This document shows positions 46,575-53,507 of a stretch of DNA of 64,000 nt, one piece after another. The position numbers were made by a program, and so were the translations under genes. This stretch comes from Medakamo hakoo. Lineage: Eukaryota; Chlorophyta; Trebouxiophyceae; Coccomyxaceae. The stretch spans positions 434,001-498,000 of the forward strand of contig CP089457.1 in the NCBI GenBank assembly GCA_026636295.1, given 5' to 3'. Every line of letters starts with the position of its first letter. Position 1 is the first letter of the stretch. Below the pieces are notes generated by a model, which was not told the DNA's origin, ran no database searches, and saw only the letters and a list, made by a program, of their open reading frames with translations.

Positions 46575-48937
46575 TCACTCCTTCAGTTGGGCGTACATAG
46601 CCGCGATCGCGCCCGCAAACGCCTTTTCCGCCGCCGCCCTCTTCACCTTGAACGTCGGCGTCAACAGGCCGTTGTCCACAGAAAAGGGCTCGGGCGTCAG
46701 CGCGACGGCCGCCACCTGCTCGAAGCCGCGCAGCTTGGCCGCCCGCCCTTCGGCCACCATGGCCGCGTGCACGGCGGCCGCGGCGGCCGGCGACGCGCAC
46801 ACGGCTTTGAGGGCGTCGTCGGGCGGCGTGCCGGGCGGGATCAAGCCGCGCTCCCTCGCCCACGGCAGGATGGCGTCCGGGTCGGGCACGACCACGCCGA
46901 CCAGCTCCGCCCGCAGCGAGTCCCCGTACACAAAGGCTTGGGCGACGAGCCCGCACCGGCCGTACACGCCCTCGATCTTTTCGGGGGCAATGTACTCGCC
47001 CTGCGCCAGCTTGAAAATGTTTTTCTTGCGGTCGATGATGCGCAGCCGCCCGCCCGGCAACCACTCCCCGACGTCGCCCGTGTGCAGCCAGCCGTCGGGC
47101 CCCAGGACTTCGTCCGTCTGGACGGGGTCCTTGTAATACCCGGAGAAGACGGACGGCCCGCGGACGCACACCTCTCCACGGGGGTGTGGGGTGTCGGTGG
47201 CCAGGTAGGACATTTCAGGGATGTCGACGAGCTTGACCTCGCAGCAGGGGATGGGGCCGCCCACATGCCCGGCCGTTTTTTCAGACGGCCACGTCAGTGT
47301 GATGGTGCACCCCGTCTCCGTCATGCCGTACCCCTCCAGCACGGTCGCGCCGAAGGCGATGCGCAGGAAGTCCAGGACTTCGGCCGCAATGGGCGCGGAC
47401 CCCGTCGTCATGAGCCGCACCCGCCCGCCAATCTTGGCCCGGATTTTGGAAAAGACGAGGCGGTCCCAGAACGCGCCGGTCAGGCCGCCGTCCCGCCCGG
47501 CCGCCAGCGCGGCTTTTTTGTGGGCGTACGCCGACTCGAACAGCCGCCGCGCAAGCGGGCCGGACTCCCGCACGCCGGCGAGGACGCGGTCGTAGATGCG
47601 GTTCCACAGGCGGGGGACGGACGCGAAGATGGTCGGCCGCAGAGCCAGGACGTCGTCCAGGAGCAGCGCCACGTCGCCCGAATAAAACCCGACGGCCACG
47701 CCGGCGTAGGTCGCGCCGACGAAGTTGACGCGCTCGTAGATGTGGGCGAGGGGGAGGTAGGAGACGTGGACGTCGCCGGGCCCGCCCAGGTTGGCGACGA
47801 GGCGGGAGCCGGCCGCGTTTGCCACGAGCGCGCCGTGCGTGAGGACGGCGCCCTTGGGGACGCCGGTCGTGCCGGACGTGTAGCACAGCAGCGCGGTGTC
47901 GCCCGGCGCCGGCGCCCGCGTCGAGCCGGCGCGGGCCCCGCCCCTGCCCGCGGCGCGGACCTCGTCCAGGGTCAGGACTTTGCCCGGCCAGCCCGGCGGA
48001 CCGGGCGGCGGGGGCGACCCGGGCGGCAGGTCAAAGACGACGACCAGGCGGACGGTCCGCGGCGCGTCGGGCCCGCCCAGCGTCGCGAGCAGGGTCGGCG
48101 CGGTTTCAGCCGAGCACGCGACCGCCACCAGGCCGGCGTGGTCGGCGATGTACCGCACCGCGTCCTCGCCCAGCGTGTCGTACAGCGGGACGGCGACCAG
48201 GGCGTGCGCGTGCAGGGCGGCGTCGACAAGGGCCCAGTCCCGGCAGTTGACAGAGTAGAGGCCGACGGCGTCGCCGCTGGCCAGGCCGCCGGCGGTGACT
48301 AGCCCCGCCCCGATGGCGTCGCGCTGGGCGCCCGCTTCCGCGTAGGTCATCCAGTGGTAGGGGCCGAGCGCGCCCCGGCCGTCGCGCTGGCGCTGGCCGA
48401 GGTACGGTTGCTGGGCGAAGGGGGTTGGGTGGGGGGAGAGGACGGGGGAAGGGGAGGTGGGCGGGTTCGGAGAGGCGGCGGAGGCTGGGTGGCCAGGTCA
48501 CCCCCCCTTTTTCGCTTTTTTCTCCATCCAACCATCCACTCACGTTTGGGTATTTGGCAATGGCCGACTCCAGCACGGCCGCCAGGGTGTCCACGCCATC
48601 GTCCGGTGCGGGGAAACGGGAGACCAGGTGTTGTGGGGACAGGACGGAGCTGTGTTGTTGGGGATGGCGGGGGGGGGGAGTGAGGCCGGCGCGAATGCTT
48701 TCCCTTTTCCGTTCCGTCCAGCCCCCAGCCTCCGTCCAAAAGCACTCACCGCCGCACGGGCCAGGGCCCAGGTGCGTCCAGGCTCTCGGGCAGGATGACT
48801 GCGTACTCCAGGTCGGTCTGTTCAGAGGAGGGCGACGACGTGGGCGACGGCGCGGCGAGGTGGGATGGGCCACCGACGCGTCCGTCATTGCCGAGGTGGG
48901 CCGCCAGGACGGCCGCCCGGCCCGCGGTCGGAGACAT
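46575..48937 (-). CDS. LACS: Long-chain acyl-CoA synthetase
   Basis: Predicted 709 aa, minus-strand exons 48937-48750, 48649-48544 and 48410-46575. It activates fatty acids to acyl-CoA through an acyl-adenylate. Seen here: QPYLGQRQRDGRGALGPYHW and MTYAEAGAQRDAIGAGL; the AMP-binding P-loop YTSGTTGVPKGAVLTH (about 274); LPLAHIYERV; VPRLWNRIYDRVLAG; GYGMTETGC; GWLHTGDVGEWLPGGRL with the adenine-binding Asp; IIDRKKNIFKLAQGEYIAPE; and the catalytic Lys in LTPTFKVKRA. The length is normal. The first exon has a modest non-conserved N-terminus, and no peroxisomal SKL-type tail is present (it ends AQLKE), so an ER or plastid-envelope enzyme is more likely than a peroxisomal one. The CAO-like gene lies upstream on the same strand. 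Confidence 0.94.
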
Positions 48938-49086
48938 GGTCTGTGAGGGGAAAGGACCTGCTCTCTCGCAGAGGAGGGCGAGGGCGGCGGGGACGGGCAA
49001 AGGGACGGGGAAACGACGAAATGAAAGCGCGAGCGCTGGCCGCGTCCTTGTCTACTCTCAACCTCTCCCTCACTCTCTCTGCGCGG

Positions 49087-49113: not shown

Positions 49114-51133
49114 TCACGTGCCCGCACTCCGCGCCGCGCCCGCCTCTGGCACCCCACTCGGCGCCGGCGGCCCGGCGTCCGCCCGCACCCCGACCCCCGC
49201 CAGCACCGCCCACCCCTGCCGCGCGCCCGGACCGGCCCGGGCCAGCCAGGGGGAGCGGGACTCGGAGAGCGCGACGCGCATCAGCACGCGCGACCCGGCC
49301 GGGTTGGTGGGGCCGCCCGCGGGCGACACCGCGTGGAGGAGGCGCACCGCCCGTCCCGCCCCGGCGTGCGTGACTACAATGCCGCATCCGGCCTGGGTGG
49401 ACGACGGCGGGGGCGCGCCCCTCCCAAGCGCGGACGCGAGCAAGGCGAGCGCGGCCGGGTGCGGGCCGTCGCTCTCGCCCGTCACGCCGCCGCCTGCCGC
49501 CGCGGCCGCGACCGCCGCCTCCCCGCAAGCCAGGGCCGCGCCGCCCGCCGCGAGGCGGGCCAGGACAACGGCGGGCGCGTCCGTGGTCGTCGCACTCGCT
49601 TCGGCCACCGTCACATACCCGGGCGGGCTGGCCGCGGCGGCCGGCGGCGGGCCGGGCGGCGACAAGGGCAGCGGGCAGGCGGCGGCCGCCGCGGCCGCCA
49701 GCCTCAGCGCGGCCGCCCCACCGGGCGGCCGCCACGCCCACACCAGGCCGTCCGCTTCGACGACGGGCAGGGCGGGGACGCGGACGCCCCGCGGCCGCGC
49801 GCGCGTGGACGGCGCGTCGACCAGGGACCCGCACCCGGCAAAGGTCCAGCCGTGGTAGGGGCACTCGGCGTGGCCGGCCGCAGACACGCGGCCCAGGGAC
49901 AGGGGGCACGCCCGGTGCGCGCACTCGTCCAAGATGCAGGCCGGCGGCGCGGCGCCCGGGCCGTGCGGGCGGAACAGGACCCAGGGGTCGCCCGCCAGGT
50001 CGAAGGCCGTCAGGGCGCCCGGGCGGAGGGACGCCGAAAAGGCGACGGGCCACCACAGCGAGGTGGGGGTGGGTAGCGCGGGCGCGGGGTGTGTGTGGTC
50101 TGGAGGGGTGACGGCCGTGGCGGCCGCCGCCGCCGGCGCGCCTTCGCCCGCGCCTGCCCACGCCGCACCGCGCGCTAACGCAGCTTCCAAGGCTTCAGCT
50201 TCCGCACGTAAATCCGCTAGGCGCGCCGCGTTGGTGGCGAGCGCGGCGGACGACGCGGCGAGGCGCGCGCGGGCGGCGCCCACGTCGGCCCGCAGCCCTT
50301 CCAACCTCTCCGCCAGCTCGCGCACGCCCACCCGGCCGTCCGCCCGGTCGCCCAGCGCGGACCCGACTTCTGCGGTGGCGGCTTCAATCACCGCCAGCGT
50401 CGCGGCGACGTCCCGGCGGGTGACGGCCTCGTACACCCGCGTCCAGAGGGCGCGGCGCGTGCGCAAAAATTCCAGGCGCTTGCGCACTTCGGTGGGGTCG
50501 GGCGCGCCCGGGGTGCGGTCGGACTCGGCCAGGCGGGCGTTGAGGACGGCTAAATCCGCCAGTTGGTCGATCTGGCGTTGTTTTTTGGGGACGCGTGTGA
50601 GTGTGCGCGTCGCACGGCTGGGTGGGAGGGGAACACACGCCCTCGCTCTCCCCCCCCCATCCACCCCACCCCACCCCACCCCACTCTCTCTCTCTTACCT
50701 TGCGGTCGCCCGCCGTCCGCGTCCGCACCCGGGGCGCGTTATCCAGCATGTCCTCCACGATGCGGTAAACGGAGGCTGGGGCGGTGCGGGAGCGCGGGCC
50801 GAGCAGGGCGCGCCACCAGGGAAAGGAACGCAGCGCGGACTCTGGGTCGGCGGTCGGGAGCGGAGGTGGTGAGGGTGGGCGCGTCGGACGTGAAGAATTG
50901 GGCGACGACGCAGAAGAGCTCGCCACGTCTGTCGACGCCCTGTCTTCTCCCTCTGGCGCGGCACGACAGACCGGGCCTCGCCTGGTTGGCGGCATGGGTG
51001 CATGGAGGGATGGGAGTGCGGCGGCGGCGGCTGCGTGTCTAGGCGTTGGCGCGGCGCACGCACAAGTGCGGCTTGCGCCGCCCATGCCGCCGCTCGAGGC
51101 GGCCGGCCGGCCGGCCGGGACGGCAGGCCGCAT
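49114..51133 (-). CDS. CAO1: Chlorophyllide a oxygenase-like protein, Rieske half only
   Basis: Predicted 630 aa, minus-strand exons 51133-50699 and 50571-49114. CAO converts chlorophyllide a to b in plastids. Seen here: a transit-peptide-like start (about 1-50); an A-domain-like region with FPWWRALLG, VYRIVEDMLDNAPRV and IDQLADLAVLNARLAE; a coiled-coil B-like linker; a complete Rieske domain starting LWWPVAFSASL, with CAHRACPLSLG (about 361) and CPYHGWTFAGCG (about 380) supplying both Cys and both His. The remaining about 200 residues show no E/D-x3-D-x2-H-x4-H mononuclear-iron motif; that region reads YVTVAEASATTTDAPAVV and is Ala/Gly-rich. In Micromonas and Ostreococcus CAO is known to be split, with CAO1 (Rieske) partnering CAO2 (iron). 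This fits CAO1; the symbol is by analogy. Confidence 0.78.
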
Positions 51134-51521: not shown

Positions 51522-53507
51522 ATGCTCGTCCGCATAGCCCTTTTTGCCTGCCTGTCCGGCTTCCTGTACGGCTACGACGAGGGCTTGATCGGCGGGGCGG
51601 CTCTGTATTTCACCAGCGACCTCCGCCTCTCCCAAAAAGCCGTGGGTGGCGTCGTCGCGGCCGCGAAAGTCGGCGCGCTGGCGGGCGCGTGGGTGGGCGG
51701 TGCGGCCATGTCCGCGTGGGGCAGGCGGAGAGCCATCGCCCTGTCCGGTGCTGCTTTCACCCTAGGCCCAGCCATCATGGCCGGCGCGCGTGGCCTGGGC
51801 ACGCTCGTGTGTGGTCGTCTGGTGGTGGGCGTCGGGATCGGGGCAGCCGCCGTGGCCGTCCCTCAGTATTTGGGCGAAGTCGCGCCGGCGCGCGTGCGTG
51901 GGCGGGTAGTGGAGGGGTTTGAAGCGGCGTTGGCGGCGGGCATGCTGGCGTCCACGCTCGTGGACGCGGCGATCGGCAGGGCGGCCGACAGAGGCGGCGG
52001 CGGGGGCGGCGGCGGCGGCGGCGGTGCCGGTGGCCCCTGGCGGGCGATGGTCGGCCTGCCCCTTCTCCCCGGCGCCGCCCTCCTCCTCGCGTCGGCCCTC
52101 CTGCCCGAATCCCCGCGCTGGCTGGTGTCTGCGGGGCGGCTGGACGAGGCGCTGGCCGTGGTGCGCCGCCTGCTGGGCGGCGGACGGTCGGCGGCCGCCG
52201 TCGCCGCGGCAGAGGACGAGCTCCTCCAACTCTGGTCGGCCGTGGAGAAGGAGGGCGCGGCCGCGGCCGAGTCGCGGGCGGCCCTGCTGGCGGGCGGCGG
52301 TGGTGGCCGGAGGCGAGGCGGCGGCGGCCTGCAGGCGTTGGAACTGGCCGTGCCGCCGCCGGCTGCCTTGCCGGCTCCACCCCCGCCGGCGCCCCTGCCG
52401 CCGCCGCCGCCGTCACCCCTCCTGCCGCCCCCGCCCCAGCCCGCCAGCCCGCCGCCCTTCCCGGACGTGGCGGACGTGCGCCCGCCCGGCCTGCCACCCA
52501 TTCGAACCATCACGCCGCGGGATGGAGGAGGAGGAGGAGGCGTGGAGGGCGGCGGCCCGCCCGCAGGCGCCGCGGAGGCAGGCGCCGCGGCCGGCGCGGC
52601 CGCCGTCGCGGCGCTCTCGTCGCTCGCGCTCGACACCGCGCCCGGCGGCTCGACGGGCGGGGCGGCGCCGCCACCCCCACCCCCACCCCCACCGCCGGCC
52701 GCTGCAGAAGCGCCGCCGACCTCCCTCGTGACCCAGCCCGAAGCGCCGCCGACCTCCCTCGCGACCCAGGCCGCCCCCGCCCACCACCGCCGCCCGGGAT
52801 TTTGGGCGGTGCTCGGCCTGATGGTGCTGGACACGCGCGCCGCGGCGTCGGAGCCCGGCACCCGGGCCGCCCTGGCCACGGCCCTCGTCCTCGCGGCCTC
52901 CAACCAGCTCATGGCCAGTTCGGCGGTGCTCAACTACGCGCCGTCCCTCCTGGAGGCCGCGGGCGCGCCCAGCCACGCGGCCGCCACGTCCCTGACTGCT
53001 TTCGTCACGGCGTCCAAGTGCGTGGGCGTGGCGGCGTCCTTCGTCCTCATCGATTCGGCGGGGCGCCGGCCCCTGGCGGTGGCGGGCGCGGCCGCGTGCG
53101 TGGCGGGCTTGGTGGGCGTGGGCGCGGCGGTCGGCGCGGGCTCCGCGGGCGCCCTGACCGCCGCACTGTCGCTGTTCATCCTCGCCTTCTCCGCCTCGCA
53201 CGCGGGCCTGGTGTGGGTGCTCATGTCCGAACTGTTCGACATGCGGCACAAGGCGGCGGCGGCCGCGCTGTCGACGTCCGCGCTCTTTGCGTCTGGCGCC
53301 GCGATCAACGGCGCGTTTCCACTGCTCAACGCTGCGCTCGGTGGGTGGGCGTTTGCTTTGTACGCGTCCGTCGCCGCTGCTGCAGGCCTGTACTGCTGGG
53401 CCCGCCTGCCGGAGACAAAGGGCAAGACGCTGGACGAGGTCGGGGAGTTGATGGCAGAGCAGGGTGGTGTTGGAAGGGGCGGGTGCTGTGGCCGCGGGCG
53501 GGTGTAG
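51522..53507 (+). CDS. MFS sugar-porter family transporter with long central loop
   Basis: Intronless, predicted 661 aa, twelve hydrophobic segments in two bundles. It probably moves a monosaccharide or polyol with protons across a membrane. Seen here: ACLSGFLYGYDEGLIGGA (helix 1); GRRRAIALSG after helix 2; RLVVGVGIGAAAVAVPQYLGE; LPESPRWLVSAGR after helix 6; DSAGRRPLAVAG after helix 8; MSELFDMRHKA; and LPETKGKTLDEV after helix 12, all sugar-porter signatures. Between helices 6 and 7 lies an unusually long loop (about residues 235-425), rich in Ala, Pro and Gly. Long central loops are known in tonoplast monosaccharide transporters, but the sequence of this loop is not recognisable. It includes a 33-bp tandem duplication. 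Confidence 0.87.
   Translation: MLVRIALFACLSGFLYGYDEGLIGGAALYFTSDLRLSQKAVGGVVAAAKVGALAGAWVGGAAMSAWGRRRAIALSGAAFTLGPAIMAGARGLGTLVCGRLVVGVGIGAAAVAVPQYLGEVAPARVRGRVVEGFEAALAAGMLASTLVDAAIGRAADRGGGGGGGGGGGAGGPWRAMVGLPLLPGAALLLASALLPESPRWLVSAGRLDEALAVVRRLLGGGRSAAAVAAAEDELLQLWSAVEKEGAAAAESRAALLAGGGGGRRRGGGGLQALELAVPPPAALPAPPPPAPLPPPPPSPLLPPPPQPASPPPFPDVADVRPPGLPPIRTITPRDGGGGGGVEGGGPPAGAAEAGAAAGAAAVAALSSLALDTAPGGSTGGAAPPPPPPPPPPAAAEAPPTSLVTQPEAPPTSLATQAAPAHHRRPGFWAVLGLMVLDTRAAASEPGTRAALATALVLAASNQLMASSAVLNYAPSLLEAAGAPSHAAATSLTAFVTASKCVGVAASFVLIDSAGRRPLAVAGAAACVAGLVGVGAAVGAGSAGALTAALSLFILAFSASHAGLVWVLMSELFDMRHKAAAAALSTSALFASGAAINGAFPLLNAALGGWAFALYASVAAAAGLYCWARLPETKGKTLDEVGELMAEQGGVGRGGCCGRGRV
52707..52772 (+). 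repeat. 33-bp tandem duplication inside the MFS loop
   Basis: Two adjoining 33-bp copies (52707-52739 and 52740-52772) differing at very few bases encode EAPPTSLVTQP and EAPPTSLATQA. The frame is kept, so this is a recent in-frame duplication in a disordered loop. Confidence 0.9.

What the first reader, a model, noticed from the sequence alone, without database searches (positions are those of the whole stretch)
49114..51133. CAO homologue with an intact Rieske centre but no mononuclear-iron site
Both Rieske Cys-His pairs are present, together with A- and B-like regulatory regions, yet the catalytic-iron motif expected about 100-150 residues later is absent and the region is degenerate. There is no room for a missing exon before the stop or before the next gene. 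In Micromonas and Ostreococcus CAO works as two proteins, one Rieske and one iron. This gene looks like the Rieske partner, so chlorophyll b synthesis here would need a second gene elsewhere. It also suggests where the alga sits in the tree.
Basis: partly seen in the sequence, partly recalled or inferred. Interest (0 to 1): 0.78.

Follow-up and report, generated by a model that had tools for sequence, protein, structure and literature searches.

The report
Two-gene chlorophyll b enzyme, Rieske half
In a tiny green alga the enzyme that makes chlorophyll b appears to be divided between two genes, one carrying the electron-relay cluster and one the catalytic iron, and the iron half lacks two amino acids recently proposed to be the enzyme's catalytic core.

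Summary
The window gene (minus strand, 51133-49114, two exons) is a chlorophyllide a oxygenase (CAO) homologue with both Rieske Cys/His pairs and no iron-binding His pair. The genome fits Medakamo hakoo, a trebouxiophyte. The predicted partner exists (contig C7, 741448-739842, minus): full mononuclear-iron motif, Rieske cluster loops deleted. Genome searches found no other CAO, though other Rieske oxygenases are present. Metagenome relatives repeat the pattern: 7 of 7 Rieske-type proteins keep all four Rieske ligands and lack both iron His; 11 of 11 iron-type proteins show the reverse. The Rieske half retains a shrunken, metal-less remnant of the iron domain. M. hakoo is reported to contain chlorophyll b (spectrophotometry), so the two proteins probably form one enzyme, as published for Micromonas. 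The alga is no prasinophyte, so the split gives no evidence for such a place in the tree; it probably arose here independently, but no Micromonas sequence was obtained to test that. Unexpectedly, 11 of 11 iron-type proteins of this clade lack the His (H355) and Tyr (Y518) proposed in 2026 as CAO's catalytic site, near-invariant elsewhere. Joint function is inferred, not shown.

The parts
49114..51133 (-). CAO homologue of Rieske type (two exons, 630 aa): proposed Rieske subunit of a two-protein CAO
   Evidence: gene model; Pfam; whole-genome match to Chlamydomonas CAO; relatives
50699..51133 (-). exon 1: N-terminal leader and start of the N-terminal region (ends ...LDNAPRVRTRTAGDRK)
   Evidence: the database relative P0001 carries LDNAPRVRTRTAGDRK too; start codon not proven
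50572..50698 (-). intron, GT...AG, 127 bases
   Evidence: inferred from frame and splice dinucleotides; no transcript data
49114..50571 (-). exon 2 with the Rieske domain, the iron-domain remnant and the stop codon
   Evidence: G+C by codon position
50179..50589 (-). N-terminal regulatory-like region (class with motif QLADLAV), 45% identical to Chlamydomonas CAO residues 78-208; predicted long helices. The match runs slightly past the exon edge
   Evidence: C10:484179-484589; motif; helices
49732..50058 (-). Rieske domain
49906..49923 (-). first Rieske ligand pair, CAHRAC
   Evidence: both ligands present in 7 of 7 Rieske-type proteins
49846..49863 (-). second Rieske ligand pair, CPYHGW
   Evidence: both ligands present in 7 of 7 Rieske-type proteins
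49117..49620 (-). shrunken remnant of the mononuclear-iron domain: both His ligands and the C-terminal RYRxWR region gone, third-ligand Asp column kept
   Evidence: hhalign P 3.1e-5 against CAO iron domains, reversed control 0.4; columns; no RxRxWR in the 7 proteins; fold match

Best explanation
The window gene encodes the Rieske subunit, and the gene at C7:741448-739842 the mononuclear-iron subunit, of one two-protein chlorophyllide a oxygenase in the plastid of Medakamo hakoo. Electrons would enter the [2Fe-2S] cluster of the first protein and pass across a subunit interface to the iron of the second, where O2 oxidises the C7 methyl group of chlorophyllide a to formyl. In Rieske oxygenases the cluster of one protomer generally serves the iron of its neighbour (general knowledge of the family), so two proteins, each of which keeps one working site, can share the job if they alternate in the oligomer. 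Shown: the complementary loss of metal ligands, its repetition in relatives, the absence of another recognisable CAO in the assembly, and the retained Rieske-oxygenase fold prediction for both. Inferred: plastid location, physical association, electron transfer and product.
Against: No expression, interaction or activity data. Chlorophyll b was measured by methanol absorbance, not HPLC. BUSCO completeness of the assembly is given as 89.5%, so a complete CAO could be missing, and the organelle contigs are not in the searched genome. A complete Rieske oxygenase of another kind lies at C9 (39% to Chlamydomonas CAO; iron motif ENAIDMAH continued in a next exon; no RYRxWR seen) and is not excluded by experiment. 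The iron subunit lacks H355 and Y518, and Y518A is reported to abolish Arabidopsis CAO in vitro (PMC13363849, section 2), which could mean that this protein no longer makes chlorophyll b. The Foldseek TM-scores of the Rieske model are modest (0.37/0.55), and its alignment contained complete CAOs, which may have pulled the model towards the full fold.
Confidence: 0.85

Rival explanations
1. The iron protein works alone or with another electron donor, and the window protein is a regulator (for example a chlorophyll b sensor or stability factor) that has kept its cluster for another purpose.
For: It keeps the N-terminal regulatory-like region, and its iron domain is gone. Other organisms show iron-type CAOs for which no Rieske-only partner was found here (Auxenochlorella P0029, P0044, P0075, P0087, P0076, P0078).
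Against: An iron protein without its own Rieske cluster needs an electron source at the same place, and the window protein keeps exactly that part of the same enzyme; both types recur as clades in relatives. Not finding a partner in the other lineages is weak: the searches were capped and listed 120 of 304 and 120 of 150 proteins.
Confidence: 0.07
2. The pair has changed its reaction, and chlorophyll b is made by a complete CAO missing from the assembly or by another Rieske oxygenase such as the one at C9:758568-756199.
For: Two residues proposed as the catalytic core, H355 and Y518, are gone in 11 of 11 iron-type proteins of the clade. BUSCO is 89.5%. C9 holds a complete Rieske oxygenase.
Against: The rest of the CAO iron domain is strongly conserved: of 98 columns near-invariant in other CAOs only 3 are lost in the clade. 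The C9 protein has ENAIDMAH in place of ENLLDLAH and no RYRxWR was seen in it.
Confidence: 0.06
3. The missing iron motif is an annotation or assembly artefact: a downstream exon was overlooked.
For: The gene model rests on sequence alone.
Against: The C-terminal part is already occupied by a homologous remnant of the iron domain; relatives P0001 and P0002 end with a similar tail; no PaO match lies near the window gene.
Confidence: 0.02

Closest known systems
Two-protein CAO of Micromonas (MpCAO1 and MpCAO2; Kunugi et al. 2013, recalled, paper not held; PMC9615114 passages)
   Same: One chain with the Rieske centre, another with the mononuclear iron; from memory of the 2013 abstract, both were needed to restore chlorophyll b in an Arabidopsis mutant.
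   Different: Here in a trebouxiophyte. The halves belong to two N-terminal classes of CAO; the iron chain lacks H355 and Y518. Whether Micromonas shows these features was not tested: no Micromonas or Ostreococcus sequence was recognised among the proteins listed by the searches.
Ordinary single-chain green-algal CAO (Chlamydomonas P0051, Chlorella vulgaris P0017)
   Same: Homologous over the N-terminal region (window gene), Rieske domain and iron domain.
   Different: Both centres in one chain; H355 and Y518 present.
Auxenochlorella CAO1A (P0029, P0043)
   Same: A CAO with the iron motif intact and the Rieske loops removed (34 residues against 72).
   Different: Carries the N-terminal motif class of the window's Rieske protein, not that of the M. 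hakoo iron clade; groups with Myrmecia P0033 (92/83); keeps H355 and Y518; no Rieske partner found here.
Dicamba monooxygenase DdmC (PDB 3gke) and other three-centre Rieske oxygenases
   Same: Overall fold of both predicted models.
   Different: Both metal sites in one chain; other substrates.

Membership tests
Chlorophyllide a oxygenase, single chain (window protein) | Rieske ligands C-x-H and C-x2-H | tested here: met
Chlorophyllide a oxygenase, single chain (window protein) | mononuclear-iron ligands: Asn, two His, Asp | tested here: not met
   both His columns without His in 7 of 7 Rieske-type proteins; third-ligand Asp column kept 7 of 7. So not filed as a complete CAO
Two-protein CAO (kind known from Micromonas) | a second gene with the iron site and without Rieske ligands in the same genome | tested here: met
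   C7:741448-739842
Two-protein CAO (kind known from Micromonas) | no complete CAO in the genome | tested here: met
   in an assembly with 89.5% complete BUSCOs; nuclear contigs only
Two-protein CAO (kind known from Micromonas) | both proteins needed together for chlorophyll b | not testable with these tools
   needs a bench test
Two-protein CAO (kind known from Micromonas) | common origin of the split with Micromonas/Ostreococcus | not tested
   no Mamiellales CAO was recognised among the listed hits; all three protein searches are used
CAO with proposed tyrosyl-radical site | Tyr of RYRxWR (Y518 in Arabidopsis) and H355 | tested here: not met
   0 of 11 in the M. hakoo iron clade for each; Tyr 98 of 98 and His 95 of 98 in other aligned CAOs, 9 of 9 for both in other iron-only or decaying CAOs
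Rieske oxygenase fold | Rieske domain followed by a helix-grip iron domain | tested here: met
   predicted models; model of the window protein built on an alignment with complete CAOs

The most novel reading that the evidence does not exclude
CAO has been taken apart into a Rieske and an iron protein more than once in green algae; in the Medakamo lineage two old CAO paralogues each gave up one metal site, and the resulting iron protein also gave up His355 and Tyr518 together. Since the alga still accumulates chlorophyll b, chlorophyll b can be made without the tyrosyl radical and without the proposed magnesium-binding His, by ordinary Rieske-oxygenase chemistry at the iron.
Probability: 0.55. 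Interest if true: 0.87.

Novelty: new variant of a known kind. Interest (0 to 1): 0.78.

Why it matters
How CAO oxidises a methyl group to a formyl group is disputed: two ordinary hydroxylations at the iron, or a radical route that starts at Tyr518 with His355 holding the substrate (PMC13363849, section 2). A clade that has lost both residues while its reported member makes chlorophyll b is a natural experiment on that dispute, and reconstituting the pair would settle it. The case also suggests that splitting CAO is a repeatable evolutionary path: intermediate proteins with one damaged Rieske ligand pair are visible in relatives, so the order of events can be studied. For the alga, it corrects any reading of a split CAO as a mark of prasinophytes.

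Tried and rejected
Tried without result: a scan of viral contigs with the iron-CAO alignment found no relative (22 stretches matched a pattern, none confirmed). The third protein search (P0017 residues 60-335) was meant to find the Auxenochlorella or Micromonas Rieske partner; among the 120 of 150 proteins listed none was recognised as such. P0128 and P0143 there look like truncated gene predictions, and P0155 keeps the iron motif. A sequence search of the PDB with Chlamydomonas CAO found no chain named CAO. My first degenerate DNA pattern for the iron motif encoded the wrong first residue, so its zero means nothing. A first alignment run timed out and a script had a syntax error; both were replaced. 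An NCBIfam scan of the C9 oxygenase failed because the stretch given held a stop codon and was not repeated.

Considered and rejected or left open: the split as a prasinophyte marker (the assembly matches Medakamo hakoo: 16 nuclear contigs, C1 of 1,473,234 bases equal to the published longest contig). One single origin of all iron-only CAOs together with the decaying ones: rejected by the AU test (p 0.0018), while joining the M. hakoo clade with Auxenochlorella (0.17), with P0044 (0.27) or with the P0075 group (0.26) alone was not rejected; parsimony counts 5 changes on that tree. The place of the Rieske-type clade among CAOs is unresolved: 113 columns, long branches, several long-branch warnings. 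Literature: searches of open PubMed Central text listed no paper that I recognised as describing a split CAO outside Micromonas/Ostreococcus; bioRxiv and most subscription papers are not held, so it may be in print. The Auxenochlorella name CAO1A suggests that its authors may have noticed something there.

Full report
What is there. The finding's gene runs on the minus strand from 51133 to 49114: exon 1 51133-50699, a 127-base intron, exon 2 50571-49114, 630 residues. Exon 2 carries a Rieske domain (PF00355, 5.4e-15) and no PaO or VanA_C domain. Both Rieske ligand pairs are intact. The reading frame shows the codon-position G+C signature of coding sequence (80/69/90%). The N-terminal part matches residues 78-208 of Chlamydomonas CAO at 45% identity.

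Which organism. The assembly has 16 contigs and 15,638,232 bases; its contig C1 is 1,473,234 bases long. The Medakamo hakoo genome paper (PMC9871001, passages) gives 18 contigs of which 2 are organellar, a longest contig of 1,473,234 bases, 72.7% G+C and a place in Trebouxiophyceae; the window has 71.7% G+C. The paper does not contain the word CAO.

The partner. A whole-genome scan with PF08417 gave 6 matches; the best is at C7:740019-740309, a gene not among the 13 Rieske matches of the genome. Its reading frame (model of 446 residues, C7:741448-739842, minus) contains ENLLDLAHAPFTH and the EDL motif, but 37 residues stand where Chlamydomonas CAO has 72, and the missing stretch is the one with the Rieske ligands. 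Its first exon is rich in Arg, Ala, Ser and Thr and could be a transit peptide (inference). Searching the genome with Chlamydomonas CAO gave 8 matches: the C7 gene (323.5 bits, 58%; plus a 36.7-bit piece), the window gene (99.8 and 78.6 bits), and others at 79.1 bits or less. The other 12 Rieske loci gave at most 98.6 bits to Chlamydomonas CAO in a local comparison against 245 for the C7 gene and 114 for the window gene. The 98.6-bit one, at C9, is a complete Rieske oxygenase with ENAIDMAH and no RYRxWR in the frames examined; I read it as another family, but that is not tested by experiment or tree.

The same pattern in relatives. The window protein found 9 database proteins, six of them (P0001-P0006) with the Rieske domain alone and 38-64% local identity. 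The iron protein found 304, of which 120 were listed; P0010-P0015, P0023, P0026, P0030 and P0034 are iron-only and form one clade with it (11 rows, SH-aLRT 100; 10 rows, 100/100). Column counts on one alignment: Rieske-type, 7 of 7 with all four Rieske ligands, none with His at either iron position, 7 of 7 with Asp at the third-ligand column; iron-type, 11 of 11 with Asn, Asp, both His and the EDL Asp, none with a Rieske ligand. Of the complete CAOs used in that alignment (52, about half of those held from the first two searches) all have all ligands, which is partly by construction because they were chosen by motif. The rows are related and the 11 are one clade, so these are few independent events.

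How it probably works. In Rieske oxygenases the cluster of one protomer passes electrons to the iron of its neighbour across an interface (general knowledge). Each M. hakoo protein keeps the body of the enzyme and one metal site, so a mixed oligomer can complete the electron path. PMC9615114 (passages) reports that the Micromonas pusilla CAO is in two chains, is active in vitro with the reductase VanB, and may be a trimer of dimers. M. hakoo wild type is reported to hold 1.1 ng chlorophyll a and 0.26 ng chlorophyll b per 100,000 cells (PMC12868012, passage), measured by absorbance in methanol at 652 and 665 nm. The genome has 23 matches to the light-harvesting protein family. With no other recognisable CAO, the pair is the best candidate for the enzyme. 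Association and activity are inferred.

Where the split came from. Many CAOs carry one of two N-terminal motifs: QLADLAV-like (window gene; P0001, P0003, P0004, P0005; Micractinium P0082; Picochlorum; Auxenochlorella P0029) or LNP-like (relatives P0014, P0026 and P0030 of the iron clade; Chlorella P0017; Micractinium P0022; Marchantia and other land plants) (a simple motif test, and the M. hakoo iron protein itself shows neither). Micractinium tetrahymenae has one of each. In the iron-domain tree the M. hakoo iron clade falls with LNP-type proteins (96; 86/90), and Auxenochlorella's iron-only protein falls with Myrmecia P0033 instead (92/83). So the Medakamo lineage probably split an old pair of paralogues, one losing the iron site and the other the Rieske site. 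Iron-only CAOs also occur as P0029/P0043 (Auxenochlorella), P0044, P0075/P0087 and P0076/P0078, and P0074, P0086 and P0124 have lost one Rieske ligand or more. All iron-only and decaying rows as one clade is rejected (AU p 0.0018); three pairwise unions with the M. hakoo clade are not (p 0.17-0.27). Repeated loss is therefore likely, its number uncertain. Whether the other lineages have Rieske partners is unknown. Independence from Micromonas is inferred from the organism's class and the presence of complete CAOs in other trebouxiophytes (for example Chlorella vulgaris, Coccomyxa viridis, Botryococcus), not from a tree with Micromonas sequences.

An unexpected point. A 2026 article (PMC13363849, passages and section 2) proposes that CAO works by a tyrosyl radical at the Tyr of the C-terminal RYRxWR motif (Tyr518 in Arabidopsis), with His355 binding the magnesium of the substrate, and states that Tyr518 to Ala abolishes activity in vitro. 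In the M. hakoo iron protein the motif reads RCRRWR. In the clade the Tyr is Cys in 7 and Ala in 4 of 11; in the other CAOs of the alignment it is Tyr in 98 of 98, and in 9 of 9 other iron-only or decaying ones. A motif search over all held proteins outside those groups found Tyr in 180 of 180 that match the motif pattern; 9 with the iron motif did not match the pattern, of which P0021 shows Tyr and the others look truncated or mispredicted at that end. His355 (placed by its distance from Asn361) is lost in 11 of 11, kept in 95 of 98 and 9 of 9. Of 98 near-invariant columns of the iron domain just 3 are lost in the clade: His355, Tyr518 and a Phe. If 3 of 98 columns were lost at random, the chance that both named ones are among them is 0.0006; I had seen the Tyr change before I ran this scan, and columns are not equally free to change. 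The Rieske-type proteins have no RxRxWR motif either. The joint loss fits the article's idea that the two residues act together, but if the pair makes chlorophyll b they cannot be indispensable. The counter-reading is that the pair no longer makes chlorophyll b.

Verdict.

Noticed in passing
G000:C7:739985-739968 (L015:2986-2969): RYRxWR motif of CAO changed to RCRRWR in the iron partner; Cys or Ala in 11 of 11 proteins of its clade, together with loss of H355.
   Followed up: partly
P0074, P0086, P0124 (database proteins): CAOs with iron site intact and one or more Rieske ligands replaced, sister to iron-only P0075 and P0087: apparent intermediate stages of Rieske loss.
   Followed up: partly
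P0029, P0043 (Auxenochlorella): CAO named CAO1A lacks the Rieske loops; no Rieske partner was found in the searches made.
   Followed up: partly
P0134 (Chlorella variabilis, database protein): Gene model begins like an LNP-type CAO and continues as a papain-type protease: looks like a mispredicted fusion.
   Followed up: no
P0006 (metagenome protein): The first part of this Rieske-type CAO prediction does not resemble its relatives and looks like a mispredicted fusion.
   Followed up: no
G000:C9:758568-756199 (L021): Complete Rieske oxygenase with ENAIDMAH iron motif, 39% to Chlamydomonas CAO over part of its length; family not determined.
   Followed up: partly
window 46575-48942 minus and 51523-53507 plus: Neighbours look like a long-chain acyl-CoA synthetase and a sugar transporter (by eye from the reading frames), with no evident link to pigment synthesis.
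   Followed up: no
PMC12584671 (passage): Reports a possible CAO in the Micromonas virus McV-KB2 at 17.89% identity to the host; the authors themselves doubt orthology.
   Followed up: no
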